From positions 55,810 to 119,809 of IMG/VR virus record IMGVR_UViG_3300044797_000101: a stretch of DNA of 64,000 bases; one strand, 5' to 3'. This document shows positions 10,064-64,000 of the stretch, piece after piece; the stretch's first letter is position 1, and the number at the start of each line of letters is the position of its first letter. The DNA is from a virus. A program made the position numbers and the translations under genes. The notes under the pieces were generated by a model. That model was not told where the DNA came from and did not search any database. It was given only the letters and a program-made list of their open reading frames with translations.

Positions 10064-10227
10064 ACTAAGCTCTCCAAGTATCTTAGATTGTCACCGTTGA
10101 AATCATGATAACAATCTATTCTTTTTAACTCAATACAGTCCCAACAGACTTGCCCATCATGAAATGAGGAATGCGTAGTATGTCTATCTTTGTCATGTGC
10201 GCACATACAGATATTAACTTCTAGCAT
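10060..10227 (-). CDS. Zn-tail family member, short (55 aa)
   Basis: One of the shortest members: Cys7, Cys9, His11, His16, Cys28, Cys31, tail GDNLRYLESLV to the end. GGAGAG in the tail codons sits 6 nt before the next ATG. Start overlaps the end of the aminotransferase gene by 14 nt. Confidence 0.82.
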   Translation of the reverse strand: MLEVNICMCAHDKDRHTTHSSFHDGQVCWDCIELKRIDCYHDFNGDNLRYLESLV

Positions 10228-11080
10228 GCTTATGAAACTCCTTTGCGATACTCAAGACAACGTTACGACCTGTATCTGTTCCCAAGACATATCCATCTAA
10301 TTCTACTACAGGTGTAACCTCTGCATAGGTTCCACATATGAATACACCATCTGCTGTAATTATATCAGGTGCAGTTAGCTTTCTTTCAATAACTTTATAG
10401 CCAGAACGCTTAGCTACACAAGACATGATGAACTCTCTCGTGAGACCTGGCAAGATGTTCCCATCGCTTGGTGGAGTGTATAACGTTATACCTGTATTAT
10501 CAATCTTAACCATGAAAAGGTTAGCTGTCAATGCTTCCGTGTAATACCCATTCCGATCTGTAAGGAACACAGTATCTGTACCAGTTTCTTTAGATAGATG
10601 CTCAAGGGACCTGAAGAATCCATAGTTGTTTGTGCTCTTGCATTGCATCCAATAATCGGGATACGAACGCTGCTTGGGTGAAGTGATTGCCTTAATCCCT
10701 AGGCGATCTTGGTTGGATGGGAGTAGAAAAGAATGTACCTCAACATTGACATCAGGACTACTTGTCTTCGCTCCTTCAGCCTTCCCAGAATAGTAGATGA
10801 CCGGACGGATATACTGTTCTCCGCCACCATTCGCAACTAAGACATCAATGCAAGCATTCATGAGAGTTAGCTTATCAAAGGGCATTGGAACTCTTAATAG
10901 CTTGGCAGAGTTGAAGAGGCGAGTGATATGATCATCTAGTAAAAAAATAGTATTTTTACCATTCTTATCTACATAGGATCGAATCCCTTCCCACACAGCT
11001 GATCCATAGTGTAAGGACCAATTGAAGGAATCTATTTGAATCGGTGAGTCGACGACCTTTCCGTTAAGCCAAGCTTTCAT
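10214..11080 (-). CDS. ilvE: Branched-chain amino-acid aminotransferase (class IV, IlvE-like), 288 aa
   Basis: PLP fold-type IV enzyme. WSLHYGSAVWEGIRSY (21-36) is the family N-terminal signature, Lys148 in QCKSTNNYG is the expected Schiff-base lysine, TEALTANLF carries the PLP-holding Glu and GTYAEVTPV near 258 is the second signature. Length is close to cellular enzymes (about 300 aa). Start 11080 has AAAAGGAATGAT; the longer reading overlaps the neighbour. D-amino-acid transaminase or aminodeoxychorismate lyase are alternative specificities. A complete metabolic enzyme amid tiny Zn-tail genes is odd and suggests acquisition. Confidence 0.9.
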   Translation of the reverse strand: MKAWLNGKVVDSPIQIDSFNWSLHYGSAVWEGIRSYVDKNGKNTIFLLDDHITRLFNSAKLLRVPMPFDKLTLMNACIDVLVANGGGEQYIRPVIYYSGKAEGAKTSSPDVNVEVHSFLLPSNQDRLGIKAITSPKQRSYPDYWMQCKSTNNYGFFRSLEHLSKETGTDTVFLTDRNGYYTEALTANLFMVKIDNTGITLYTPPSDGNILPGLTREFIMSCVAKRSGYKVIERKLTAPDIITADGVFICGTYAEVTPVVELDGYVLGTDTGRNVVLSIAKEFHKHARS

Positions 11081-11081
11081 A

Positions 11082-11294
11082 TCATTCCTTTTGCTTACTT
11101 TTATATTCCAGATACTCAAGGTTCGACATCGGTCCAAAGAAGCAAAGGTTCAAGACTCTGCCATGCTCATCCTCTGCGGTTGGACAAACAACCCTCTCAG
11201 CATACTCACCAGTTGCAGACCAATCATCATGCACATCCTTAAGCTCATGACAATACCTACAAAGCTGCTCGTTGGAACTAAGATCGTTGTTCAT
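11082..11294 (-). CDS. Zn-tail family member (70 aa)
   Basis: Head Cys12, Cys15, His22; later Cys37 and Cys51. Tail SNLEYLEYK at 58-66. The final residues QKE are encoded by CAAAAGGAA, the Shine-Dalgarno of the aminotransferase gene. Confidence 0.83.
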   Translation of the reverse strand: MNNDLSSNEQLCRYCHELKDVHDDWSATGEYAERVVCPTAEDEHGRVLNLCFFGPMSNLEYLEYKSKQKE

Positions 11295-17241: not shown

Positions 17242-17410
17242 CAGCTAAGTCCTCTAATAGACGTAGATTATCTTGACTATATCCAGAACAGTTGCAATGG
17301 TTTCCTTCTCTCTCAAACCTGAAATAACAATCCTGATACCAATTGCCATCAGCTGCAATGTGGTGGTAAGCGATATGTCCGCAGACACATTTGGTATATG
17401 GATTAGGCAT
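17216..17410 (-). CDS. Zn-tail family member (64 aa)
   Basis: Cys8, Cys10, His12, His17, Cys28, Cys39, Cys41, then YSQDNLRLLEDLADE. TTAGAGGAC in the tail codons is the ribosome binding site for the next gene. First family member after the lipase gene. Confidence 0.86.
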   Translation of the reverse strand: MPNPYTKCVCGHIAYHHIAADGNWYQDCYFRFEREGNHCNCSGYSQDNLRLLEDLADEKTARRP

Positions 17411-18308
17411 TTGGTGGAGGAACTGGCGGGGTTGGATTCTTCCTCAAGATCTTGCTATGCCTAAAGAACCGTTCGATATGGTACTTAGCATAGTTGTAAC
17501 TATCCTTGAAGACCGATTTAGCGAGTGCACGGTTGGGATTGAATATGTCCACAGGTTGAGTAAGACCTGGAGCTAAGTAGATAAGCTTTGTCTTGCCAAC
17601 CTTCTTGGGCCATATCTCCTTCTCAGTGATACTCATACTGCGACGTACGATCTCTAGGATAGGAAAGATATCATCCTCTAGATAACTATTATCATCCGTT
17701 GTCTGCTCGTAGCTTAGGTTGGACACGATAATATAATCTAGATCAGGATGAACGTTAAGCAATGCTTTAGGGAGCTCATCCTTAAGCATTGCGCCATCGA
17801 TATAGTATTGCCCATCAATTAGCTTAGGCATGAACATTACAGGGATTGCCGCTGAAGCTCTGCACTTCTCTGAAATCTTACCTGTATTGAATAGACGAAG
17901 CTTATAGGTTTTGAGGTCGGTTGCTGATACATAGAAGGGAATCTCTGTCTTACTGAAATCGTCCTTATCCGCAAGACGATCAGCGACATACTGCTCAAGC
18001 TTCTCACCCTTAATAAACCCCTTGAAATTCTTAGCCTTATTTACAATGAACTCTTTTAAGATATCGAAGCGTGAAACCTTATCGAGGAATTGGTCCGCTG
18101 TTAATGTGAGCATGTGGTGAAGCATAACCTGATCGTTAAGTCCTGCTGCCATGAATGAACCAATGATTGAACCCGCTGAAGCTCCTAAGATAACCTTCGG
18201 CTTGATACCTAAATCCCTAATAGCCTTAACAACACCCGTGTGCGCGTAAATCCCCTTAAGACTTCCACCAATTAAGATCAATCCAATCTTTGGCTGGTTC
18301 TCTTCCAT
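17403..18308 (-). CDS. Patatin-like phospholipase, 301 aa
   Basis: Alpha/beta hydrolase with a Ser-Asp dyad. Oxyanion loop GGSLKG at 14-19, nucleophile elbow GASAG at 42-46 (Ser44), ASAAIPVMF at 151-159 and catalytic Asp171 in DGA. Length suits a single patatin domain; no signal peptide or transmembrane helix, so it should act from the cytoplasm on membrane lipids. First gene after the 18324 promoter and ahead of the Zn-tail run, so probably expressed with it. A role in host membrane damage or lipid remodelling is inference. Confidence 0.92.
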   Translation of the reverse strand: MEENQPKIGLILIGGSLKGIYAHTGVVKAIRDLGIKPKVILGASAGSIIGSFMAAGLNDQVMLHHMLTLTADQFLDKVSRFDILKEFIVNKAKNFKGFIKGEKLEQYVADRLADKDDFSKTEIPFYVSATDLKTYKLRLFNTGKISEKCRASAAIPVMFMPKLIDGQYYIDGAMLKDELPKALLNVHPDLDYIIVSNLSYEQTTDDNSYLEDDIFPILEIVRRSMSITEKEIWPKKVGKTKLIYLAPGLTQPVDIFNPNRALAKSVFKDSYNYAKYHIERFFRHSKILRKNPTPPVPPPNA

Positions 18309-40646: not shown

Positions 40647-41708
40647 CTATTTACCGTGTGCTTTATTTTCCACAACGGTATTTGACGATACATATCTAAA
40701 TTTTGCATGAGCTCGTAATTCATCGAGGTTAAACGCATTGAGATAACTGCAAGCGCTTCTGATACCGCCATTGATCTGGTTCAATACATTCACTGCTGGA
40801 CCTTTTAAAGGCATCCAGGTTGAATCGCCTTCAGGGGAACGCCACGATGCAACCTTGCCTTGTGCTTCATAAGACGAAAGTGAAGCGGATCCACGATATT
40901 CTTTGTGCTTTAAACAGTAATTAGTACTACCGAAATTCTTCGTAATATCATGATCAGGGCGGCAAAATTTACCACTTGCCTCATCCGTACCAGCGAACAT
41001 TGAACCAAGCATGATAAGATCCGCACCAGCTGCTAAAGCCTTAACGATATCTCCACTGTTACGAAGTCCTCCATTCACCATCATCTTGATATCATTATCA
41101 TCGCATACACGAACCGCACTGCCAATAGACTCAAACGTAGGTACTCCAACGCCTGTTACTACTCGGGTTAAGCACATGCTTCCCCCACCAATACCAACAC
41201 ACACTGCATCAGGCTTTCGATCAGCTAAACGGATGAACTCTTCAATCTCTTTGCCAGTGCCAAAGTTTCCTACGATGATCTTACAATTAGGTAGCATCGC
41301 TGATAGATGCTGAAACATAGCGACAACGAGGATATTAGCGGCATGTGCAACATCAAGCAAGAAGATCTCAGCTCCTGCTTCAGCAAGCTTAGAGGCACGG
41401 AGTAATTCCTGTTCACCGACTCCTACAGAAACGATAGGTTTAATCCCGTTATGAATGGAAGCTTTAAACAACCGTACATTCTCTTCAATCGTACAGAAGC
41501 GATGGATTGAACTCACTGCACCATAATCATGCAACACCTTACTAAGCTCGGGACTTGCAACAGTATCCATATTAGAGTTTGTAACTGGTAAGCTAAGCTT
41601 AAGTCCTAAGAAGTCAGTAGATGGATTAACATCTTGTCTGCTCTTAACATGAGAGAAGATAGGTTCTAATAAGACATCATCAAAACAAAGCCAGTCTAGT
41701 TCGCTCAT
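40647..41708 (-). CDS. IMP dehydrogenase / GMP reductase, 353 aa
   Basis: TIM-barrel of the GuaB/GuaC family without CBS domains: FDDVLLEPIFS at the start, SNMDTV, GIGGGSMCLTRVV with the catalytic Cys (about 176), NGGLRNSGDIVKALAAGADL, YRGSAS and EAQGKV. Length is closer to GMP reductase (about 345 aa) than to IMPDH (about 490 aa with CBS). It would shift guanine nucleotide pools; the direction cannot be told from sequence alone. Confidence 0.88.
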   Translation of the reverse strand: MSELDWLCFDDVLLEPIFSHVKSRQDVNPSTDFLGLKLSLPVTNSNMDTVASPELSKVLHDYGAVSSIHRFCTIEENVRLFKASIHNGIKPIVSVGVGEQELLRASKLAEAGAEIFLLDVAHAANILVVAMFQHLSAMLPNCKIIVGNFGTGKEIEEFIRLADRKPDAVCVGIGGGSMCLTRVVTGVGVPTFESIGSAVRVCDDNDIKMMVNGGLRNSGDIVKALAAGADLIMLGSMFAGTDEASGKFCRPDHDITKNFGSTNYCLKHKEYRGSASLSSYEAQGKVASWRSPEGDSTWMPLKGPAVNVLNQINGGIRSACSYLNAFNLDELRAHAKFRYVSSNTVVENKAHGK

Positions 41709-43115: not shown

Positions 43116-43144
43116 AGTATAACATAAATAGGTCTAAATTACTA
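43116..43144 (-). promoter_or_regulatory. Candidate promoter, TGTTATACT with poor -35
   Basis: Minus strand -10 TATACT (43121-43116) preceded by TGT; the -35 position (TAGTAA) is weak and lies in the stop region of the polymerase gene. Confidence 0.5.
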
Positions 43145-45722
43145 CCTCTTTTTGCACAAGGTTGTCTACTGTGGCTGGTTTCAACGTGTGCATCCTACCC
43201 CAACGCTTCCCAATCTTAAACTCTGCAATTAAGGGTACCTGAATATCCAGGATCTTACGAGTCATAGCTTCATTCATAATTGCAATTGTTTGCTTGAGCT
43301 CCTCAGCAGGAACCTCAACATAAATAGCATCATGGACGAGGTTACGAAGCTTACCATGCAACCCTTTAGCCTTCAGGTTATTATAAATCCTATTAGCAGC
43401 ATTGGATACATAGTCTGAAGCTGCACCTTGGATGGGTGAGTTAACTGCACCTTGCTCATCCATATAAGCAATCTTATTATCCGAATGATTAATAGCAAGC
43501 AAGTGACGTACACGACCAAAACGATTGCGTACATAATAATTCTTACGAGCGAATGAGACGATATCTTTCTTCCATTGCTTAGCGACAGGATATCGGCTGA
43601 AGAATAGATCCTTAACCTGCTCGGCGTATTGAATACTAACACCATGATCGTGAGCAAGTTTCTCTGATCCCATGTTAAACATGAGTCCGAATACAATACT
43701 CTTGGCAATACGACGTTGGTCTTTAGTAACTTGTTCCATAGGAATTTTGTTAGCAGCCGAAGCCATGTATTTATGGATATCAAGACCATCATTTAAGTCT
43801 TTAACAAGTTGAGTATCGTTAGAATAAATTCCCCACCATCTAAACTCGTTCTGTCCTTCATCAGCCTCAATCAAGATATTACCAGGTTCTACACAGAACA
43901 TATTCTTAATAAGCTTGGAATCACGAGGGAAATTCTGGAAGTTAGGATCACGGCTTGAGAGTCGTCCTGATTCTGTACCTTCCTGTAAGAACTTGGTATG
44001 CAACCTACTGTTCTTATCAAGACGTTCCTCAATGCCTATAACGTACGTTCGGAGCAATTTTGCAATTCCTCTAAATTCTAGGATCTTGTTAGGGATACTA
44101 TTTTTATCCTTATGACCCGTAGCATCCTTGAAATTCTCCGCTAGAACATTCAGGACTTCCTCATCAGTAGAAAAGCCAGTCTTTGTGGTCTTAACCGGCT
44201 TAAGTTTAAGCGTTGTAAACAAGAGGTTTGAAAGTTGCTTGGGGGAGTCAATGTCTACAGGTTCAGTTACACCAGCTTTAGCTAATAAAGCATCGATATC
44301 AGCTTGTGTTTGTACAAGCTCAGCTTCCAGTGTCTTCTTGGCATATTGCATGGCAGTCTGGTCAATCTTAAACCCTTCAAATTCCATTGTTGTCAGAGTA
44401 TAGTTCAAAGGCATAACAAGATGATGCAGTAGATCTGTCATACCTTCAGCCTCTAAACGTTCCATGAAGATCTTCTTAAGCTGGAGCGTTACATCAGCAT
44501 CAGCTGCACCATATGAGAATAGAAGATCCGTAGGTACTCGAGCGTAATTCTTCTCATCACTCTTACCCATCTTATTGGCTTTGAACCATTCATCTAGTTC
44601 TTTCTTATGCTGTCCTTTACCAAGGTATTGGAGTGACATATCCTCTAGGTTATGCTCACCCTTTGAGGTTTCGCGCAGAAGATAGTGCATTAGCAACGTA
44701 TCATAGGCTAGTGGTTTCAAATTCCAACCAAGCTGCATCAAGAACTTCCAATCGAACTTGCCATTCTGTGCAATAAATTTGATATTGCTTTCCATGATCT
44801 GGCGGAACTTGTCCATGATGTACTCTTGCTTATCTTCCCACCAAGGATGATAGGTGTCTTCCAATGTCTTCTCAATAACCTCAATGGGTTTCATTGTGGT
44901 AACACCCTTGCGGGTTACCTTCTTTTCCTTAATAACTATATTCTCGTGCTCTACACCAATCCATCGTGTAATAGGAAGTAAAACACCAGTATTCGCAGCC
45001 CAGGAGAATGAGCAGCAAATGATCTTATTCTCTTGCCAATCAAAGCCAGTGGTTTCTAAGTCGATTGCAACCTCTTCCTGTTCCATGACACGTTCAAAGA
45101 AGGCATCAAATGTCTCAATACTATCAATGACGAGATACTTACCCTTCTCAGTTGCTGTAAGCTGTGGATACTTGGATGATTCAATGGCACGACGAAGATC
45201 TTGAGTAACAACCTCTTCTAAGCTTGGATTGCGAAGGACAGCACCCATATCATAAGTAGGCAAAACCTTGCAGCCAAAACGATCTGACCAGACCTCAATC
45301 CCTCTATGCTCTGTAACCTTGGGTTTCTTTATCTTAAATACAGCTGACATAGCCTCTGTTCCCATAGGTACAATGATATGAGGTTTAATAGAAGCGATCT
45401 CTTTATCTAGGTATTCAGCACATGCTTCAATCTCATCATAGTGAGCAGGACGGAATCCTTCCACCGTTCTAAGGTTAGCACGGCATCGCGTAGCATAGGT
45501 AAAATACACTTGGCTATGATGAAGTCCAAGACGCGCCAATAAGCTATGAAGCTTACGCGCAGAAGGACCTGAAAATGACTTCTGGTTTTGATCATCTTCA
45601 AATGAAGGTGAATTCATTACAAAGACTATCTTAGATGTTTCATCCCCCATGCCATTAAGCACACAAGTACGTAACTCAGATAAGGGACATTTATTACAGC
45701 TGTTGTTCTCGAGATTTTGCAT
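43134..45722 (-). CDS. polA: Family A DNA polymerase with N-terminal UDG-like domain, 862 aa
   Basis: Residues 1-200 form a uracil-DNA-glycosylase-like domain (CPLSELRTCVLNGMGDETSK, VFVMNSPSFEDDQN). The 3'-5' exonuclease domain follows (AIDLETTGFDW, Asp-x-Glu about 219-221; AQNGKFDWKFL; YGAADADVTLQL). In the polymerase domain motif A is EADEGQNEFRW rather than DYSQIELR, motif B RRIAKSIVFGLMFNMG has Phe-Asn for Tyr-Gly, and motif C LVHDAIYVEV has Ala after the catalytic Asp. UDG-polymerase fusions are known in SPO1-type phages. The main replicative enzyme here. Confidence 0.93.
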   Translation of the reverse strand: MQNLENNSCNKCPLSELRTCVLNGMGDETSKIVFVMNSPSFEDDQNQKSFSGPSARKLHSLLARLGLHHSQVYFTYATRCRANLRTVEGFRPAHYDEIEACAEYLDKEIASIKPHIIVPMGTEAMSAVFKIKKPKVTEHRGIEVWSDRFGCKVLPTYDMGAVLRNPSLEEVVTQDLRRAIESSKYPQLTATEKGKYLVIDSIETFDAFFERVMEQEEVAIDLETTGFDWQENKIICCSFSWAANTGVLLPITRWIGVEHENIVIKEKKVTRKGVTTMKPIEVIEKTLEDTYHPWWEDKQEYIMDKFRQIMESNIKFIAQNGKFDWKFLMQLGWNLKPLAYDTLLMHYLLRETSKGEHNLEDMSLQYLGKGQHKKELDEWFKANKMGKSDEKNYARVPTDLLFSYGAADADVTLQLKKIFMERLEAEGMTDLLHHLVMPLNYTLTTMEFEGFKIDQTAMQYAKKTLEAELVQTQADIDALLAKAGVTEPVDIDSPKQLSNLLFTTLKLKPVKTTKTGFSTDEEVLNVLAENFKDATGHKDKNSIPNKILEFRGIAKLLRTYVIGIEERLDKNSRLHTKFLQEGTESGRLSSRDPNFQNFPRDSKLIKNMFCVEPGNILIEADEGQNEFRWWGIYSNDTQLVKDLNDGLDIHKYMASAANKIPMEQVTKDQRRIAKSIVFGLMFNMGSEKLAHDHGVSIQYAEQVKDLFFSRYPVAKQWKKDIVSFARKNYYVRNRFGRVRHLLAINHSDNKIAYMDEQGAVNSPIQGAASDYVSNAANRIYNNLKAKGLHGKLRNLVHDAIYVEVPAEELKQTIAIMNEAMTRKILDIQVPLIAEFKIGKRWGRMHTLKPATVDNLVQKEVVI

Positions 45723-53352: not shown

Positions 53353-54663
53353 TTATGCTAATTCGTAGTTGTAAGGTTTAATGATCTTTTCCAAACGCTG
53401 CTGATCATCGGCTGCTGATACGAACAACCAACGGCTATCGCCTACTGGAAACTTAGAATTCATTTCCCATAAAACCTGCACTGGATTGTTGCTTGTTATA
53501 CCTACGCCTTGAGCGAATGAATCCGTACCAATCATACTACCATTAATGATGATATGAGCTCCGCTCGATACCTGGAAGTGAGCAGCTTGATGCACATGTC
53601 CGAACACGAATACTTCGAATGGATCACGACCTTCTTTGTATTCAGCTTCATTGACGCGTGATACCTGTTTGTTGATATTGTCTGTATTGATGCTTTTACC
53701 TGGGTTGCCAGTAACGAACACGCCATCACCATGTGTCATATAGACGCGATGACCTTGAATTGTTACAGTTGCATACGGTGTTTTAGGGACAACGATCTCA
53801 ACCTTAGGATCTTTCGAGAAGTATTTTGAAAGAGCATAGAAGATGATGTTTTCATAAGAGTCATACTTCTGAGACAACGCTCGATCCTTAGACTGCTTGT
53901 GCATCATTCGACCATGGTTTCCTGGTTGACATACAACGCGAACCTTAGGATAGAAGGCTTTAAGATGTTCAAACGCCTGGATAAAGTAGCTAAGTGCTCC
54001 GTTGACCTGGAATGTGATCAAGTCATAATCTGGACCTTCCTGATTGTGAATAATCCCACCAATCAAGTCACCACCAAGAAGCAATACTACTTCTTCATGC
54101 AAGTGACGAAGTTCCATCTTATAGGTCTGAAGCTGTTCCATGATGAAGCCGAAACGACGAGCGCCAATGTTCCAATTGAATTCATTCTTTCCACCGAGCT
54201 CTGCTGGATCAACATTCGTACCGAAGTGAAGATCAGTAAGAGCTACCACGACTGATCGAGGTGTCGTATCATGAAGATCAGTTTTCTCAATTGACTTGAT
54301 ATATGCTTTAGTGGCTTTTTCATTCAAAATTACTGGTTCTACTCTCATTGTTTCCAATCGTTTGCACAATGAATCAGTTAGCTGTTCAGCGAAAGCATCC
54401 CATTTACCATATTGCTTTTCTAATTTGCCCAAGTAGGATTTACGCTGTTTATTCAGCTCAATATCCTTCAAGGATTTGGTTGTCATAGGGAAGTAAGTAG
54501 ATAACAATGTCTGATATCCGCCAACTGATTGAAGCTGCCAAGGGGTAATACCGCTCAGCTCAATAAATTTTGCTTTGGGGAGTTGATAAGCATCAACGCC
54601 TAAATTTGCAGCGATCGTTTCAATCTGTTTTACAATATCCTTAACCAGTTTACCGTTAGCCAT
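53353..54663 (-). CDS. Calcineurin-like phosphoesterase, 436 aa
   Basis: VVALTDLHFG (Asp, His), LLGGDLIGG, CQPGNHGR, MTHGDGV, FVFGHVHQAAH give the metal sites across about residues 140-370; the N-terminal 130 residues carry a helical, HTH-like region. Larger than the phage phosphoesterase at 8652. Nuclease or phosphatase, unresolved. Confidence 0.86.
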   Translation of the reverse strand: MANGKLVKDIVKQIETIAANLGVDAYQLPKAKFIELSGITPWQLQSVGGYQTLLSTYFPMTTKSLKDIELNKQRKSYLGKLEKQYGKWDAFAEQLTDSLCKRLETMRVEPVILNEKATKAYIKSIEKTDLHDTTPRSVVVALTDLHFGTNVDPAELGGKNEFNWNIGARRFGFIMEQLQTYKMELRHLHEEVVLLLGGDLIGGIIHNQEGPDYDLITFQVNGALSYFIQAFEHLKAFYPKVRVVCQPGNHGRMMHKQSKDRALSQKYDSYENIIFYALSKYFSKDPKVEIVVPKTPYATVTIQGHRVYMTHGDGVFVTGNPGKSINTDNINKQVSRVNEAEYKEGRDPFEVFVFGHVHQAAHFQVSSGAHIIINGSMIGTDSFAQGVGITSNNPVQVLWEMNSKFPVGDSRWLFVSAADDQQRLEKIIKPYNYELA

Positions 54664-55147
54664 TTAAATCTCCTTGTTTCGGACTCCAAACAGTCCATGT
54701 ATAATTGTATCCTAAATCCTTCATTACTTCAAGTAATACTTTCTCAGTTTCTTCCCATGGTACTCCGAACAATCCGCTGTTAAACTTACATGAGTGAAGT
54801 TCACCATGCATGCCGCTTGTTTCATGGATCTTAAAAAACAGCTTTAAAGCTTCTCGTGTGCTTTTGAGGATCTTGGCCTTTGAATCTTTCTTTGCACCAT
54901 AATCTAATGACGTAACTAGGTTCAAAACAGTGTACCCGTTTTCTTGCGAGCATTCAATAAACTTTCCAAGAAGGTCTTCGCCTTCTTGCTGACACATCTC
55001 TGTGTAGAATTGAAAACTCTCAGGGAACCTAACTTTAAATTGTTTGGCAATCCCGCTACCCCAAACTGACCGCGTTGAAACTGCATGGATGAGTAAGCTT
55101 CCAGCGGGAGCATCAAACAATGAACCAGTTTTGTGTACGATAGGCAT
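54656..55147 (-). CDS. Macro-domain (ADP-ribose-binding) protein, 163 aa
   Basis: GSLFDAPAGSLLIHAVSTRS then VWGSGIAKQFKVRFPESFQF matches the Poa1p-like macro domain (G-D/S-L, H-x-V, G-x-G-I-A-x-x-F), and FNSGLFGVPWEETEKVL is the phosphate-binding loop region. Such proteins hydrolyse or bind ADP-ribose 1''-phosphate or ADP-ribosylated targets. Fits with the NAD-related genes at 60-63 kb. Confidence 0.85.
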   Translation of the reverse strand: MPIVHKTGSLFDAPAGSLLIHAVSTRSVWGSGIAKQFKVRFPESFQFYTEMCQQEGEDLLGKFIECSQENGYTVLNLVTSLDYGAKKDSKAKILKSTREALKLFFKIHETSGMHGELHSCKFNSGLFGVPWEETEKVLLEVMKDLGYNYTWTVWSPKQGDLNG

Positions 55148-58012: not shown

Positions 58013-58533
58013 ATTATGATCTCAAGTAAAATCTCTTCAACTGTTTTAACCTTATCATATGGAAGCTTGCAACCCTTCAAAAATTGTTCCATTTGACGTT
58101 CAAGCTTGTTAGCCTCTTTCTCAGTTTGGAATCGTCCCTGCGCTTCATAAGGAAAATCACGTTTAACAAGCACATTCCAGTAGTTCACATCGTTCAATTG
58201 AGCCAATTCCATAACCTTCTTAGCTGCTGGTACAAGATGATGAGATTTATAGTTAACAGACTCATAGAATCCTGACAAGATCAATGGTGAATCTGTGATT
58301 ATAATGTCAACCTTGTTATATAAGGATGTTTCTTCTCGAACCTGGTTGCCGAACACAATCATCTGATCCGCATAGTTCATCTTACGACCTTCCCATGCCC
58401 AAAGCTTCACCCATTCACGAACCATCTCAACCTGATAGCCATGTTTCTTAAGCTCTGAGAATAGATCAGCTGCTAGTGTGCTCTTGCCTGATCCAGGTGC
58501 GCCGAATAAATTAATTACCGTTGTCTTTGTCAT
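58009..58533 (-). CDS. P-loop nucleotide kinase (AAA_28/NadR-kinase-like), 174 aa
   Basis: Walker A GAPGSGKST at 11-19, REWVKLWAWEG, ADQMIVFGNQ and TDSPLILSGFYES match small kinases including the NadR ribosylnicotinamide kinase domain. If it uses a nicotinamide riboside it would feed the NAD genes nearby; a role in nucleotide or DNA end phosphorylation is equally possible. Confidence 0.75.
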   Translation of the reverse strand: MTKTTVINLFGAPGSGKSTLAADLFSELKKHGYQVEMVREWVKLWAWEGRKMNYADQMIVFGNQVREETSLYNKVDIIITDSPLILSGFYESVNYKSHHLVPAAKKVMELAQLNDVNYWNVLVKRDFPYEAQGRFQTEKEANKLERQMEQFLKGCKLPYDKVKTVEEILLEIII

Positions 58534-59002
58534 GACGTTTATAAGCCTTTTTTAGATATTCAAGTGCAGTCTTTCGACCTGTCCAACCCTTTACAATAAC
58601 TATTTTCTTTTCTAATTGTTTATAGACCTTAAAGAAGTGCTCAATCTCATTCAATCGATCTTGTGGCACATCACCTAATTTTTTAATATGACTATAATGA
58701 GGATCGCGCACTGGGACAGCAAGAATTTTATTATCCTCAACCCCATGATCAATCATTCTCAGCATACCAATGATTCGTACCTCAATAACGCATCCTGTAA
58801 AAGTAGGTTCACCTGTAAGAGCCATAATATCAGCTGGATCACCATCAGACGCTAAGGAATTTGGAATAAATCCATACTCTATAGGATATTGGGTTGATGT
58901 GAATAGCATACGACTAAATCTAAACGCATTTATTTTTGGGTCCCATTCAATCTTGTTTCGGCTTTTACGAGGGCACTCTACCATCATGTCGTATGTTTTC
59001 AT
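58511..59002 (-). CDS. ppa: Inorganic pyrophosphatase (family I), 163 aa
   Basis: Start at 59002 with GGAGAGGGAATTGC. YPIEYGFIPNSLASDGDPAD carries the DxDPxD metal signature (SDGDPAD), and PVRDPHYSHIKKLGD with D-x-x-x is in the right place. About 20% shorter loops than E. coli Ppa (175 aa). It would pull PPi-forming reactions such as DNA synthesis and NAD+ assembly. Confidence 0.88.
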   Translation of the reverse strand: MKTYDMMVECPRKSRNKIEWDPKINAFRFSRMLFTSTQYPIEYGFIPNSLASDGDPADIMALTGEPTFTGCVIEVRIIGMLRMIDHGVEDNKILAVPVRDPHYSHIKKLGDVPQDRLNEIEHFFKVYKQLEKKIVIVKGWTGRKTALEYLKKAYKRHDKDNGN

Positions 59003-59169
59003 GCAATTCCCTCTCCATAAAAGTCTAAAGGTAGTATAGAATTCCAATCAATATTATTACGTTCCACCACTAATTCTCGAATAGCTGTTTGAAAATCAAT
59101 TCTACCATTATGAAAATCAGCTTGAATTTGATTTTCTATTTGATCGTAAAGATGCAAAGACGTTTTCAT
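58999..59169 (-). CDS. Hypothetical 56-aa protein
   Basis: MKTSLHLYDQIENQIQADFH, then NGRIDFQTAIRELVVERNNI and a Pro/Phe end. ATGA joins it to the pyrophosphatase gene and to the DnaB gene. Helical. Confidence 0.58.
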   Translation of the reverse strand: MKTSLHLYDQIENQIQADFHNGRIDFQTAIRELVVERNNIDWNSILPLDFYGEGIA

Positions 59170-60563
59170 GGTATTGTAGTAGACGCAGGAGGAGGTTGAA
59201 CAGCTGCTGTTCCACCGATCTGAAGCTCCTGAATCTGCATGTATTTTCCTTGAATGTTTAAGGTCGCTACTCCAGTTTCAGAGTGGCGTGACAATACTAA
59301 TGCAAGACGTGCGAAACCCTGCTTACCGTTACGATCAAAATCCTCTTGGTTCTCAATCTTCCATGAGAAAACATAATCGACGTCTTTCAATGGTTGACCA
59401 GAACGCTCAATGTCATACGCGTCAAAGTCTTTATCATTATCAACGCCTTCTTTAGCACTGCTTGCCTTAACGTGAGTAAGCAGAATGAACGGAACACGCT
59501 TATCCAATGCAATACTACAAATTGCTTGGGCGATATGACCCTTAAGTTGCCAATCCTGCATCACTTCTTTAGAATTGGTTGTCATACGTCCAAAGTGGTC
59601 GACTACCACAAGCCCTACGTTCTTACCTTCAGCTTTAAGCTTATTCAAACGCTCATTGATAAGCTCTGGAGTACTGATCGCTGGAGGAACCTCATCGAAG
59701 TAGATCTTATTCAAAATCTGGTGCTTACCATCCTTAACAGATTGAATCCATTGCTTCCAGCGTGACTCTTCCATCGGAGTCATCTTGTTATCCTTAATAT
59801 GCTTGAGGGGGATAGATAACTCCATAGCTGCAAACCTGCTATAAAACAGTTTATAGGTACCTTCGTTTGCATGATAATAGGAATAGATACCACGTTTAGC
59901 TGCATTGTAGCAAATCGTCATAGCTAAAGCTGATTTAAATCCTTTGGGCGGTGCCATGATGATTGATACACTAGAAGACACGAGTCCGCCAGTAATCTCA
60001 TCCATCGTGTTAAACCCGATCTTGAGACCTTCATACTTGCTTGGGTTAATCTTACGATCTTCAAACTCAAAGTCGATCTCTTCAGAGAATTGATCAAGCT
60101 GACCGCTGCGGATAACCTCTTGTCTAAACTTGCTCTCAATTCGTGCAATGTCAGATTTTAAGATATTGATTGACTCATCAATCTTGTTCTCTGAAAACTT
60201 CTCAGCCGAACGTCTTAAAGCATGCTCAACCAGGTTCTGCTTATTATAACCAAGGATCTGATCATATAGAAAATTGATATCTGTATCTACTGACTCAGTT
60301 TGAAGCTCTGTAAATAAAACTGTGATAGACTGCTGAAGATCTGGGGAAAGCTTGGTGGATTTCTTTAAAAGACCATCAAGCTCATTTGATGAGAGGCATG
60401 TTCCATAATTCTGAGCATACCAAATAGCAATACCATATAATTTAGCTGCTGTAGTCCATTGAAATACATCCTCACCGATCCTACGCTGGACGGCAACCGT
60501 AGCTGCATCTACATCTCTAATTATTCGTGCTAAAAATCGTCTTTCTAACTGCTGGTCAATCAT
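59166..60563 (-). CDS. dnaB: DnaB-type replicative helicase, 465 aa
   Basis: N-terminal all-helical domain (1-150), a linker, then RecA-like core: Walker A APPKGFKSA (about 214), EGTYKLFYSRFAAME, VGLVVVDHFGRM (Walker B), LTHVKAS, DIERSGQPLKDVDYVFS and SRHSETGVA. Length matches bacterial DnaB. Works with the split primase and PolA at the phage fork. Confidence 0.92.
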   Translation of the reverse strand: MIDQQLERRFLARIIRDVDAATVAVQRRIGEDVFQWTTAAKLYGIAIWYAQNYGTCLSSNELDGLLKKSTKLSPDLQQSITVLFTELQTESVDTDINFLYDQILGYNKQNLVEHALRRSAEKFSENKIDESINILKSDIARIESKFRQEVIRSGQLDQFSEEIDFEFEDRKINPSKYEGLKIGFNTMDEITGGLVSSSVSIIMAPPKGFKSALAMTICYNAAKRGIYSYYHANEGTYKLFYSRFAAMELSIPLKHIKDNKMTPMEESRWKQWIQSVKDGKHQILNKIYFDEVPPAISTPELINERLNKLKAEGKNVGLVVVDHFGRMTTNSKEVMQDWQLKGHIAQAICSIALDKRVPFILLTHVKASSAKEGVDNDKDFDAYDIERSGQPLKDVDYVFSWKIENQEDFDRNGKQGFARLALVLSRHSETGVATLNIQGKYMQIQELQIGGTAAVQPPPASTTIP

Positions 60564-60724
60564 TTTTTATCCTTTTGACTCGTCAAATGGAATTGTTCAC
60601 AAAAGCATTTATACACTCGGACATAGACATCCTTCCCAGCAAGAAAGTCAGCTGCTTTTTGAGCCGCTTCCTTGCTAGGATATGTCTTTTTCGTCGTGTG
60701 ATTAATTACTGAGTTTGACTTCAT
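60560..60724 (-). CDS. Small Cys-pair protein (54 aa)
   Basis: MKSNSVINHTTKKTYPSKEA, AQKAADFLAGKDVYVRVYKC then FCEQFHLTSQK. The pattern Y-x(n)-A-x-x-A, V-Y-x-C-x-C-x-x-x-H-L-T is a common phage mini-domain with a CxC...H zinc half-site. ATGA with the DnaB gene. Confidence 0.62.
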   Translation of the reverse strand: MKSNSVINHTTKKTYPSKEAAQKAADFLAGKDVYVRVYKCFCEQFHLTSQKDKK

Positions 60725-62202
60725 TATTTTGAGTGCAGCAATTTATTTGCTAATCTATTCCTTATACCAGAAAACGTCTCATTAATCAAGAGTTTTCCAT
60801 CTATGAATACATCTTGAAGGGCTGTTTCTGTGTCAGCATCTTTGATTGTCCAATTATCAGAATAGGCAAAAGAACCATCAACAAGCTCAATGACACGCAC
60901 TGCACCACGAGCTGATTTCTTAACTCCGCTATCTGTTACTGGATCTTTAAAGATGGGAATCTCTTTGCCATCGATCACGCAAGCAGTCGATTTCATAGCA
61001 TACCCAAACGTATCACGTGTATTGTATTGATATGTATAAGAACCAATGCCATAGACCATGTTGGTCGAGGCAAAGCCCTTAGCTTTTAGACCTTCGCAAA
61101 TGTCTTTTGCACGGGTACGAGTAATAGCATCTCCATAGATACACCCGATGTGAGAATCTAACACCTTATACCCTTGAGGAGTAATTGTTCCACCAAATAC
61201 ATCCCACAAGAGCTCAATGACACCTTTGCGTTCTGCTTCAGTTTTACCCTCTGGATTTCCAATAACAATCTTAACTGGATCGCCAGAGTCAGGACGAATA
61301 ACAACCTTCCCGTCACGTGCAAGGATTGTGTCTTTAAGTGTAGGAACTACACGTGTCAATACATCCCAAAGATCATATCCATCAGCAACGATGGATACAA
61401 AGCCAGCAGGATGGACACGAGTAATCAATTCAGTGAAGTATTTAAGATCATCACCATATGCACATTGAATGCTATGCTCAGAAGCTGGGATAGAACAGCC
61501 AACCAGTTCCTTCTCAACATTCGCACCATAGTAATGCTCTGCACCTTGAATCGCTGGGATTGTATCTGTTCCAACGAATGAGAGCAAATGTCCCATACCA
61601 CTTAAGATAGCTGATTCTACCGAAGACATGCCTCTGAAAGAAAAGTCATGACCTTGAAACTGTACAAAGCCAATATCTCCAGTCGTTTCTAGCGCATACT
61701 TCTCAAAGATCTTCCTATACTCACGAGCCACGGTAGCGCTTGTGCTTGCCTGCCAAAGTTGAGCAGACATCAATGACTCAATGTAGTTGGTAAGCCAGAA
61801 GAATCTAGGCTCAGTATTCTGCAATGTCATTAAGGGTACACGAAGAGGCACGATCGAACCTTCAGGTAAAGATTTGATCTTTAAGGGAAGATAGCCAAGA
61901 TCATGAAGTGCCTCGATATGAGACACGTCAGGGTTAGCAACTCCTAGGGTGTTTTTAATGATACGAGAATATTCGGCAATGACATCAGCCTTAGGACGGC
62001 TAAAAAATTGTTCATTAAAGAAGTCGATTAAAAATTCCTTAATGAAAGCTTGTGCTCCGAAATGGACAACTTGATTAACGTCGAGTAGGCGGCTTGTTCG
62101 AGCTGTCCATGTAGAATAGACAACCTCGGTTTTTTGAGGATACATACTGCGGTGTGCGATCTTATAAAAATCACACAATAACATCGCTGACAGGTTTTTC
62201 AT
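60724..62202 (-). CDS. nadV: NAMPT-like nicotinamide phosphoribosyl- (or ADPR-) transferase, 492 aa
   Basis: Start at 62202 with CAAAGGAGCAGTATC. LLCDFYKIAHRSMYPQKTEV, YSTWTARTSR, GMSSVESAILSGMGHLLSF, VADGYDLWDVLTRVV, RPDSGDPVKIVIG and GIGSYTYQYNTRDTFGYAMK are NAMPT/NadV core motifs. NadV makes NMN from nicotinamide and PRPP. In the described phage NARP1 pathway a NAMPT-like enzyme (Namat) joins nicotinamide to ADPR-pyrophosphate, rebuilding NAD+ directly. With a Prs-like partner downstream-adjacent and no NMN adenylyltransferase seen here, the second reading is favoured. Confidence 0.92.
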   Translation of the reverse strand: MKNLSAMLLCDFYKIAHRSMYPQKTEVVYSTWTARTSRLLDVNQVVHFGAQAFIKEFLIDFFNEQFFSRPKADVIAEYSRIIKNTLGVANPDVSHIEALHDLGYLPLKIKSLPEGSIVPLRVPLMTLQNTEPRFFWLTNYIESLMSAQLWQASTSATVAREYRKIFEKYALETTGDIGFVQFQGHDFSFRGMSSVESAILSGMGHLLSFVGTDTIPAIQGAEHYYGANVEKELVGCSIPASEHSIQCAYGDDLKYFTELITRVHPAGFVSIVADGYDLWDVLTRVVPTLKDTILARDGKVVIRPDSGDPVKIVIGNPEGKTEAERKGVIELLWDVFGGTITPQGYKVLDSHIGCIYGDAITRTRAKDICEGLKAKGFASTNMVYGIGSYTYQYNTRDTFGYAMKSTACVIDGKEIPIFKDPVTDSGVKKSARGAVRVIELVDGSFAYSDNWTIKDADTETALQDVFIDGKLLINETFSGIRNRLANKLLHSK

Positions 62203-62256
62203 GATACTGCTCCTTTGATAGGATCGCTTCACGTTGCCGTGATTTCGCCTATACAA

Positions 62257-62991
62257 TTATTTTATTACTTCACCATTCCTGGTGAAAATTCGTTTTATCC
62301 CTGCTTCTCGAAGTGGTTCTAATCCTTTAGAGAAAATCCCATGTGAAATATACAAGTGAACCTCAGTCGCTCCAGCTTCATATAGCTTTTTAGCTACTTC
62401 AATGAACGTTCTACCACCATCACAAATATCATCAATAATCAAATATGCTTTAGGTTCAACTGTACCTATAACTGTAAGTCCCTCAATCTTGCCTGTAAGA
62501 GGTTCGCGAATTTTTTCACAATGTATAGCAGTCGAATCAGCTTTATATCGTTTAGCTGCTCCGCTATCTGGATAAACTGGAGCTGCATGTAATTTTTCAA
62601 GTAGTGGAGCAACATTAGGCATTATAGGATTAACGTTTTGAATCAAATAAGAAAACTGCAAATTGTGCGGATCAAAAACAACTACCTCTCTAAATTGAAG
62701 AGCATTCAAAAGAGAAGCGAATGTTCGAAAAGCAAACGTCGATTGATTTGTTACTGGTTTATCTTGACGCGCATATGGCAAATAGGGTAACTCCAAAACG
62801 CATCGAGGTCCAGAAAGCGAATATATTAGTTCTTTTAATTGAGCGACATGCATGAATTCAGCTTCGTTTTCAAATTCCCACATGATTGTATTGTCAACGG
62901 GATTAAACCAATCATCTGGAAGCTTCCAAACCTGAGAAGTCTTATCAGGAAAGATCGTAGGTGTAACTATATGTCCATTGAGTTTAATCAT
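62257..62991 (-). CDS. prs: Prs-like ribose-phosphate (or ADP-ribose) pyrophosphokinase, 244 aa
   Basis: YLPYARQDKPV, FAFRTFASLLNAL, VVVFDPHNLQ-type segment (REVVVFDPHNLQFSYL) and the PRPP loop IIDDICDGGRTFIEVAKKLY are typical of PRPP synthetase. At 244 aa it is about 65 residues shorter than cellular Prs, as are the phage ADPR-PP synthetases (Adps) of NARP1. First gene after the 62998 promoter and 54 nt from the NAMPT-like gene. Confidence 0.9.
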   Translation of the reverse strand: MIKLNGHIVTPTIFPDKTSQVWKLPDDWFNPVDNTIMWEFENEAEFMHVAQLKELIYSLSGPRCVLELPYLPYARQDKPVTNQSTFAFRTFASLLNALQFREVVVFDPHNLQFSYLIQNVNPIMPNVAPLLEKLHAAPVYPDSGAAKRYKADSTAIHCEKIREPLTGKIEGLTVIGTVEPKAYLIIDDICDGGRTFIEVAKKLYEAGATEVHLYISHGIFSKGLEPLREAGIKRIFTRNGEVIK

Positions 62992-62997
62992 ATCTCT

Positions 62998-63026
62998 ATT
63001 ATATCATGAATTGCTTGATTTGTCAC
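62998..63026 (-). promoter_or_regulatory. Promoter, GTGACA-17-TATAAT
   Basis: Minus strand -35 GTGACA (63026-63021), spacer ending CATGA, -10 TATAAT (63003-62998). Overlaps the end of the transporter gene. No other promoter of this type was found until 43116, so it may drive a 20-kb replication transcript headed by the NAD genes. Confidence 0.83.
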
Positions 63027-64000
63027 TCTCTTTTTTAACCTCTAAGAATGGGATGAACGGAAGGCATAAAAACGTGGTAAGTCCTGAAACTATAACCAGG
63101 CCATTGTATCCAAACATCCCAAACAGCTTAGCGCCAGCCAAATTTGAGCAGAATGATGCGAAGTTCACCAAGGCAGTTAATAATGCAAAGGTGGTCGCTT
63201 CTGTGCCTTTAGGACACATATAAGCCATCATTCCTAGCATCAAAAGCTGTGTAAATTGCCCAGACATGCTAAAAACGATGTTATAAACCAAAATCGAGTG
63301 GGGGGTAATCCATAGATAGGCAAAGGAAGTAACACCGTTAAAAATGACACTATAATATAACCACTTTTTAACGTTTATACAGTGACCCCACTTAAAATAG
63401 ATGAGGGCACCGACTATTCCAAATATGGACCCAATCGTGTCAAGCCAGCCAATCCAAATTTTGGAAAAATGAAGCTCATTTCGCATCTTGTCCATAAGTG
63501 GTGTACCAATGGATGGGGAAAACCAAAAGAGCCATAGAAAGATAGCTGATAGGATTAATTGCCTGTTGTTAAGCTTTACAAGGAATTCCTTGATGTTGGT
63601 ATGTTTAGATACTGCAATCTTGTTGGTATCTATAGATACCTTTTCTTCTTTTAGATACCATGAAAGTGCAACGATTGATGCAGGGAATAATGAAACGATT
63701 AGGTAAGCCATGTGATAATCAGCATGCTCCGATATCCACCCGCCCAAAACTCCAGTTATGATAGTTGCTATTCCAAGGCTTGCCCATTGAATGGATTGAT
63801 ACTTACCTACTGTTCCATTCTTTACTCCATCTTCAATCACAAGACCATTTACAGCAACGTTATCGCCTGCTTGGCCAACTGCATAAAGGAAAAGAAAAAA
63901 CAACAATACATGAAACGATACTACAGGTATTAATCCAATCACCAAAGCCATAATACTGCAGATTAATCCACTGATAAAAATATAAGGCTTGCGTCGAAGT
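63004..64000 (-). CDS. MFS transporter, BT1/folate-biopterin-like, right-truncated at N-terminus
   Basis: Runs past the right edge: codons before the Met at 63951 read RRKPYIFISGLICSI, the typical MFS loop 2-3 motif, so the N-terminus is outside. About eight or nine hydrophobic helices are visible up to KKESDKSSNS at the C-terminus. Character resembles BT1-family transporters of small heterocyclic solutes. Located upstream of the NAD+ genes; import of nicotinamide or a related compound is a guess. Confidence 0.78.
   Translation of the reverse strand, partial: LRRKPYIFISGLICSIMALVIGLIPVVSFHVLLFFLFLYAVGQAGDNVAVNGLVIEDGVKNGTVGKYQSIQWASLGIATIITGVLGGWISEHADYHMAYLIVSLFPASIVALSWYLKEEKVSIDTNKIAVSKHTNIKEFLVKLNNRQLILSAIFLWLFWFSPSIGTPLMDKMRNELHFSKIWIGWLDTIGSIFGIVGALIYFKWGHCINVKKWLYYSVIFNGVTSFAYLWITPHSILVYNIVFSMSGQFTQLLMLGMMAYMCPKGTEATTFALLTALVNFASFCSNLAGAKLFGMFGYNGLVIVSGLTTFLCLPFIPFLEVKKESDKSSNS

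What the first reader, a model, noticed from the sequence alone, without database searches (positions are those of the whole stretch)
60724..64000. Probable NAD+ reconstitution pathway (NARP1-like) with an adjacent transporter
A short Prs-like and a NAMPT-like gene lie in one transcript behind their own promoter, with an MFS/BT1-like transporter just upstream. Prs-like plus NAMPT-like is the published NARP1 gene pair (ADPR-PP synthetase and nicotinamide ADPR transferase), which rebuilds NAD+ from ADP-ribose and nicotinamide after Thoeris- or SIR2-type depletion. No NMN adenylyltransferase, needed for the alternative route through NMN, is visible. The transporter association appears new.
Basis: partly seen in the sequence, partly recalled or inferred. 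Interest (0 to 1): 0.85.

Follow-up and report, generated by a model that had tools for sequence, protein, structure and literature searches.

The report
Phage NAD+ rebuilding gene pair (NARP1)
A tailed phage known only from metagenome sequence carries a textbook copy of the known two-enzyme NARP1 pathway, which lets phages rebuild the coenzyme NAD+ after bacterial defences destroy it; the transporter gene beside it is unusual for a phage but also occurs in related phages without the pathway.

Summary
On the minus strand near the contig end lie a Prs-like gene (62257-62991) and a NAMPT-like gene (ATG 62202, stop at 60724), with a BT1/MFS transporter upstream (63004-64000, 5' end cut off by the contig). 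The NAMPT-like protein is a Namat: 60% identical to SPbetaL1 Namat (solved with NAD+) and keeping every listed NAD+-contact residue except F392, which is Tyr; the adenine clamp that human NAMPT lacks is complete. The Prs-like protein has the short Adps form and an altered ribose-phosphate loop. No NMNAT is found in the 119.8 kb record. The pair is therefore a NARP1 module, a known counter-defence that is common in phages.

'Own promoter' is supported: an extended -10 promoter stands 6 bases before the Adps ATG and is kept in a relative, implying a leaderless mRNA.

The transporter claim is weaker. Relatives of this MFS gene lie on the DnaB side of five IMG/VR phages, three of them without NARP1 in the record. 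It is a rare phage transporter of this lineage, not shown to belong to the pathway.

Side leads: a pyrophosphatase 1.7 kb downstream, in-place Namat replacement in a relative, and recurrent macro-domain genes inside other phages' NARP1 operons.

The parts
62257..62991 (-). Adps-like gene (ADP-ribose pyrophosphate synthetase), 244 aa
   Evidence: phrog_619 3e-58; TIGR01251 8e-25, below its cut-off; 30% to SPbetaL1 Adps over 258 columns against 27% over 188 to E. coli Prs; KxR loop kept, DDICDGGRTF in place of Prs DDMIDTGGTL
60724..62202 (-). Namat gene (nicotinamide ADP-ribose transferase), 492 aa
   Evidence: 60% to SPbetaL1 Namat, best PDB hits 9W5X/9W5W 3e-200; motif GSYTYQYNTRD and residues R38, Y389, Y393, T395, D397 of the adenine clamp
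62998..63026 (-). extended -10 promoter in front of Adps; the -10 ends 6 bases before the ATG, so a leaderless transcript is inferred
   Evidence: 11/12 match with TG; same element in the same place in L082; same promoter-to-start spacing at other genes of the record, 0 on the other strand
63004..64000 (-). MFS transporter of the BT1/folate-biopterin type, 5' end cut by the contig
   Evidence: BT1 3e-23; the full relative P0006 matches TIGR00788 at 2e-32, below its cut-off; MFS fold by AlphaFold and Foldseek; relatives in five IMG/VR phages
60560..60724 (-). small ORF (54 aa) filling the gap between Namat and the DnaB-like helicase, overlapping both slightly; role unknown
   Evidence: read directly from the sequence
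59166..60563 (-). DnaB-like replicative helicase, anchor of the neighbourhood; not part of the pathway
   Evidence: DnaB_C 2e-20, phrog_19 4e-47
58511..59002 (-). family I inorganic pyrophosphatase; possible but unproven helper that removes PPi
   Evidence: Pyrophosphatase 7e-54; kept at 55% in L082; matches in only 10 of 50,697 phage records, several of them from bacterial entries
54656..55147 (-). Poa1p-like macro domain with Ser at the near-invariant Asn; in the same run of genes, not next to the pair
   Evidence: Macro 6e-8; ADP-ribose 1''-phosphate phosphatase structures 6lft 4e-18; alignment

Best explanation
The pair is a NARP1 NAD+-reconstitution module. When a host defence such as Thoeris or a SIR2, SEFIR or KomBC NADase splits NAD+ into ADP-ribose and nicotinamide, Adps moves pyrophosphate from ATP to the 1'' position of ADP-ribose, giving ADPR-PP, and Namat joins ADPR-PP to nicotinamide, giving NAD+ and PPi in two steps, without NMN. 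Shown here: gene identity, the complete Namat adenine clamp and catalytic residues, Adps form and motifs, gene order, a conserved promoter, no NMNAT in the record. Inferred from published work on homologues: the reactions and the rescue of phage growth. The transporter is a lineage gene of this phage group next to the replication genes and is probably not a step of the pathway.
For: 60% identity to SPbetaL1 Namat and best PDB hits 9W5X/9W5W. All NAD+-contact residues listed in the structure paper are identical except F392, which is Tyr; human NAMPT has K, G, K at 40, 392, 396. The consensus GSX-T/S-X-Q/N-X-N/V-TRD that separates Namat from Nampt (PMC12774641) is met by GSYTYQYNTRD and by nearly all Adps-linked homologues. 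Adps keeps KxR and PDxGA but has DDICDGGRTF at the ribose-phosphate loop. No PF01467 match in the record, with a working control. The same gene order recurs in L082.
Against: No biochemistry on these proteins. Adps selectivity for ADP-ribose cannot be read from sequence (the 2026 paper calls it obscure), and identity to the tested Adps is only 30%. Namat also makes NMN from PRPP in vitro, so an NMN route using the host's own NMNAT is not excluded. The record may be incomplete.
Confidence: 0.88

Rival explanations
1. An ordinary NAD+ salvage pair: the Prs-like enzyme makes PRPP and the NAMPT-like enzyme makes NMN, which a phage or host NMNAT adenylylates.
For: Homology of both to Prs and NAMPT; Namat can make NMN from PRPP in vitro (PMC12774641); bacterial hosts carry their own adenylyltransferases (general knowledge).
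Against: The adenine clamp is complete and human NAMPT lacks it; the loop that binds ribose-5-phosphate in Prs is changed; no NMNAT in the record.
Confidence: 0.07
2. A transporter-coupled NARP1: the MFS protein imports nicotinamide, ADP-ribose or a precursor and belongs to the module.
For: MFS and Adps are 8-12 bases apart in the window and in L082, and the MFS gene is 2.2 kb from the pair in L006.
Against: The MFS gene stands without NARP1 in G001, G003 and G005. A conserved promoter separates it from Adps. Of 62 NARP1 loci only L006 holds it within 6 kb, and in a survey of the nearest flanking genes of NARP1 loci the only transporter listed was the L082 gene, which had been fetched through the MFS. 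Its closest named families move folate/biopterin or muropeptides.
Confidence: 0.07
3. A decayed or silent copy of NARP1.
For: None found.
Against: Open frames, complete active site, Shine-Dalgarno site for Namat, conserved promoter for Adps.
Confidence: 0.02

Closest known systems
NARP1 of Bacillus phage SPbetaL1 (Adps WIT26982.1, Namat WIT26983.1; structures 9W5W, 9W5X)
   Same: Gene order Adps then Namat on one strand; Namat 60% identical with the same NAD+ pocket
   Different: Adps only 30% identical, with DDICDGG instead of DDLSSFGG; a 54-base gap instead of overlapping stop and start; sits beside a DnaB-like helicase and an MFS gene
Human and bacterial NAMPT with PRPP synthetase (canonical salvage)
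   Same: Fold and catalytic core
   Different: No adenine clamp in human NAMPT (K, G, K at the three key positions); a third enzyme is needed
RyDEP-NARP1 operon of mycobacteriophage DyoEdafos (PMC13232231)
   Same: A NARP1 pair with an extra gene in the neighbourhood
   Different: There the extra gene is a tested glycosidase inside the operon that makes ADP-ribose; here the neighbours are a transporter and replication genes with no tested link
Folate/biopterin (BT1, TIGR00788) and AmpG-type MFS transporters
   Same: Sequence profile and MFS fold
   Different: Scores below the NCBIfam cut-offs; nearest cellular relatives found are 28-34% identical, in Melainabacteria/Obscuribacter and Omnitrophota genomes

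Membership tests
NARP1 | Adps and Namat genes adjacent on one strand | tested here: met
[quoted passage not shown]
   GSYTYQYNTRD
NARP1 (Namat) | Selectivity-clamp loop residue that stacks on adenine (Arg40 in SPbetaL1) | tested here: met
   R38 aligns with R40
NARP1 (Namat) | Nampt-like catalytic core (F189, D215, R306, catalytic His) | tested here: met
   all present; His in PASEHS
NARP1 (Adps) | Prs homologue of Adps form, linked to Namat | tested here: met
   short N terminus, KxR loop, DDICDGGRTF shared with Namat-linked homologues; clade with L006 and L082 at 0.999
NARP1 (Adps) | Pyrophosphorylation of ADP-ribose rather than ribose-5-phosphate | not testable with these tools
   needs purified enzyme; no published sequence rule for Adps was found
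NARP1 | Rescue of NAD+ and of phage growth under NADase defence | not testable with these tools
   needs experiment
Canonical Prs-NAMPT-NMNAT salvage | NMNAT encoded with the pair | tested here: not met
   no PF01467 match in the record even at E 1
BT1/folate-biopterin transporter | Match above the curated cut-offs | tested here: inconclusive
   above Pfam BT1 cut-off (82.7 against 22 bits); below TIGR00788 cut-off (112.7 against 216.4, full-length relative)

The most novel reading that the evidence does not exclude
NARP1 is the core of larger ADP-ribose salvage operons that phages assemble repeatedly: macro-domain hydrolases supply or repair ADP-ribose (including ADPR-1''-phosphate that could form when ADPR-PP breaks down), and in this lineage a pyrophosphatase pulls the Namat reaction forward and an MFS protein moves a related metabolite.
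Probability: 0.15. Interest if true: 0.65.

Novelty: new member of a known kind. Interest (0 to 1): 0.36.

Why it matters
NARP1 shows how phages survive NAD+-destroying immunity. This copy extends it to an uncultured tailed-phage group, where the module is facultative and one of its two enzymes has been exchanged in place. The wider survey points to macro-domain genes as recurrent partners of NARP1, which is directly testable.

Tried and rejected
The transporter found nothing in 50,697 phage records by tblastn, even as the full-length relative at E 0.01, and no PDB chain by sequence. A single-sequence scan found one viral relative, an alignment found five, so such scans miss distant kin; the pyrophosphatase scan found none although L082 encodes one, so that is a false negative. 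Pyrophosphatase as a NARP1 partner: it is clear in G000 and G004 only, not in NARP1-bearing G002, and a link to DNA synthesis is at least as likely, so no claim. The macro domain of the window as part of this NARP1: a macro gene is also in NARP1-less G001 and the window copy lacks the near-invariant Asn, so not claimed. Host: no tRNA genes and only distant cellular kin of the transporter, so not assigned. Literature on a transporter or macro domain with NARP1: none found in the held library; the founding NARP1 paper was not found there.

Full report
What is there. The window is the last 64,000 bases of a 119,809-base viral record that carries portal and large-terminase genes, so it is a tailed phage. 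Nearly all genes run on the minus strand (117 of 120 ORFs of 100 aa or more). In reading order the end of the record holds: an MFS transporter cut off by the contig end, a Prs-like gene, a NAMPT-like gene, a 54-aa ORF, a DnaB-like helicase, an inorganic pyrophosphatase, a P-loop kinase, a CHC2 primase, an SSB-like protein, RecA, a macro domain, a phosphoesterase and an AAA ATPase.

Namat. The NAMPT-like protein is 60% identical to Namat of phage SPbetaL1, whose structures with NAM and NAD+ are 9W5X and 9W5W (PMC12774641); human NAMPT matches far less well (E 1e-65 against 3e-200). That paper defines what separates Namat from NAMPT: a loop residue (Arg40) and a helix motif GSX-X-X-X-X-X-TRD with aromatic residues that hold the adenine of ADPR-PP. 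In an alignment numbered on SPbetaL1, every listed NAD+ contact is identical in the window protein except F392, which is Tyr; human NAMPT has Lys, Gly and Lys at 40, 392 and 396. Nearly all homologues found beside an Adps gene in IMG/VR carry the same motif.

Adps. The Prs-like protein is 244 aa, shorter at the N terminus than E. coli Prs, keeps the KxR loop and the PDxGA and DPH elements, and replaces the Prs stretch DDMIDTGGTL by DDICDGGRTF, shared with other Namat-linked homologues; that this stretch is the ribose-5-phosphate loop of Prs is general knowledge of the family. It is 30% identical to SPbetaL1 Adps over 258 columns and 27% to E. coli Prs over 188. Substrate choice of Adps cannot be read from sequence.

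No NMN adenylyltransferase is found in the record at E 1, with the control genomes ringing. This is weak evidence, because hosts have their own.

Promoter. The best sigma-70-type match in the last 6 kb, GTGACA-17-TATAAT with an extended -10, ends 6 bases before the Adps ATG. Relative L082 has TTTACA-17-TATAAT at the same place although its transporter is only 47% identical. Across the record, extended -10 promoters that meet a start codon 4-9 bases later occur six times on the coding strand, five of them with a full TATAAT 5-6 bases before an ATG, and never on the other; a first-order random model gives 0.15. So Adps very probably has its own promoter and a leaderless mRNA, while Namat follows a normal AAAGGAG site. 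The transporter lies upstream of this promoter.

Transporter. It belongs to the BT1/MFS family; the full-length relative matches folate/biopterin transporters below the cut-off and folds as an MFS protein. It is very rare in phages: no match in 50,697 phage records, five in IMG/VR. In these five the gene lies on the DnaB side: L082 (G004) repeats the order MFS-Adps-Namat-DnaB-pyrophosphatase-CHC2-SSB-RecA-macro-phosphoesterase, though without the kinase; L006/L081 (G002) has Adps-Namat, 2.2 kb, MFS, DnaB; G001, G003 and G005 have no NARP1 in the record. The transporter is thus a gene of the lineage and NARP1 comes and goes beside it. A functional link is possible but has no support beyond neighbourhood. 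The records may be incomplete, so an absent NARP1 could lie in a missing part.

Module exchange. Adps of the window, L006 and L082 form one clade (0.999), but Namat of L082 belongs elsewhere: holding the three together costs 73 log-likelihood units and is rejected (the printed p-value is too extreme to take literally). Flanking DnaB and RecA are 78% and 87% identical between window and L082, Namat only 54%. [quoted passage not shown]

Side lead. In 62 IMG/VR loci with both NARP1 genes, nine have a macro-domain gene directly in the operon: between Adps and Namat in L019, L026, L031 and L069, and directly after Namat in L010, L016, L025, L027 and L070. Macro was the commonest family among 88 nearest-neighbour genes, with 5 of 88 at E 1e-4. 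They fall into a Poa1p-like and an OARD1/BT1257-like type and are scattered on the Namat tree (nine changes for nine carriers), and among loci with a macro gene the abutting places are over-used (P about 0.0004 in a simple placement model made after the pattern was seen). A published precedent is RyDEP, a gene inside a NARP1 operon that makes ADP-ribose for it (PMC13232231). The window's own macro gene is 5.6 kb away and lacks the near-invariant Asn, so it is not claimed as part of this module.

Verdict. A new member of a known kind, well supported as NARP1; the transporter association is a neighbourhood, not a demonstrated part. Namat or NAMPT homologues occur in 1,939 and Adps or Prs homologues in 1,459 of 50,697 phage records, so the pair itself is not surprising.

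Noticed in passing
L010, L016, L019, L025, L026, L027, L031, L069, L070: Macro-domain genes of two subfamilies sit inside or directly after NARP1 operons in nine of 62 IMG/VR loci, scattered over the Namat tree.
   Followed up: partly
window 58511-59002: Family I inorganic pyrophosphatase inside the replication run of a phage; matches in only 10 of 50,697 phage records, several of them from bacterial entries; kept in L082.
   Followed up: partly
window 62998, 22576, 8608, 7398 and contig 46680: Extended -10 promoters with TATAAT ending 5-6 bases before an ATG, none on the other strand: probable leaderless mRNAs as a habit of this phage.
   Followed up: partly
window 54656-55147: Poa1p-like macro domain with Ser at the near-invariant Asn (HAVSTRS instead of HACNAQG), possibly without hydrolase activity.
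   Followed up: partly
L082 9933-11399: Namat exchanged in place: Adps clusters with the window's, Namat does not.
   Followed up: yes
L054, L064, L071 and phage vB_BcoS-136: Namat matches split into two collinear pieces with hundreds of bases between them; introns, inteins or insertions.
   Followed up: no
window 10214-11137, 40647-41708, 17403-18308: Class IV aminotransferase, IMP dehydrogenase/GMP reductase and patatin phospholipase genes in a phage.
   Followed up: no
window 43134-45722: Family A DNA polymerase with an N-terminal uracil-DNA glycosylase domain.
   Followed up: no
neighbours of NARP1 loci (alignment A3): TROVE (Ro60-type) genes in 3 of 88 and one NADAR gene beside NARP1 pairs.
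   Followed up: no
G003 150670-150870: Weak pyrophosphatase match with an internal stop in a NARP1-less relative, perhaps a remnant (E 0.005).
   Followed up: no
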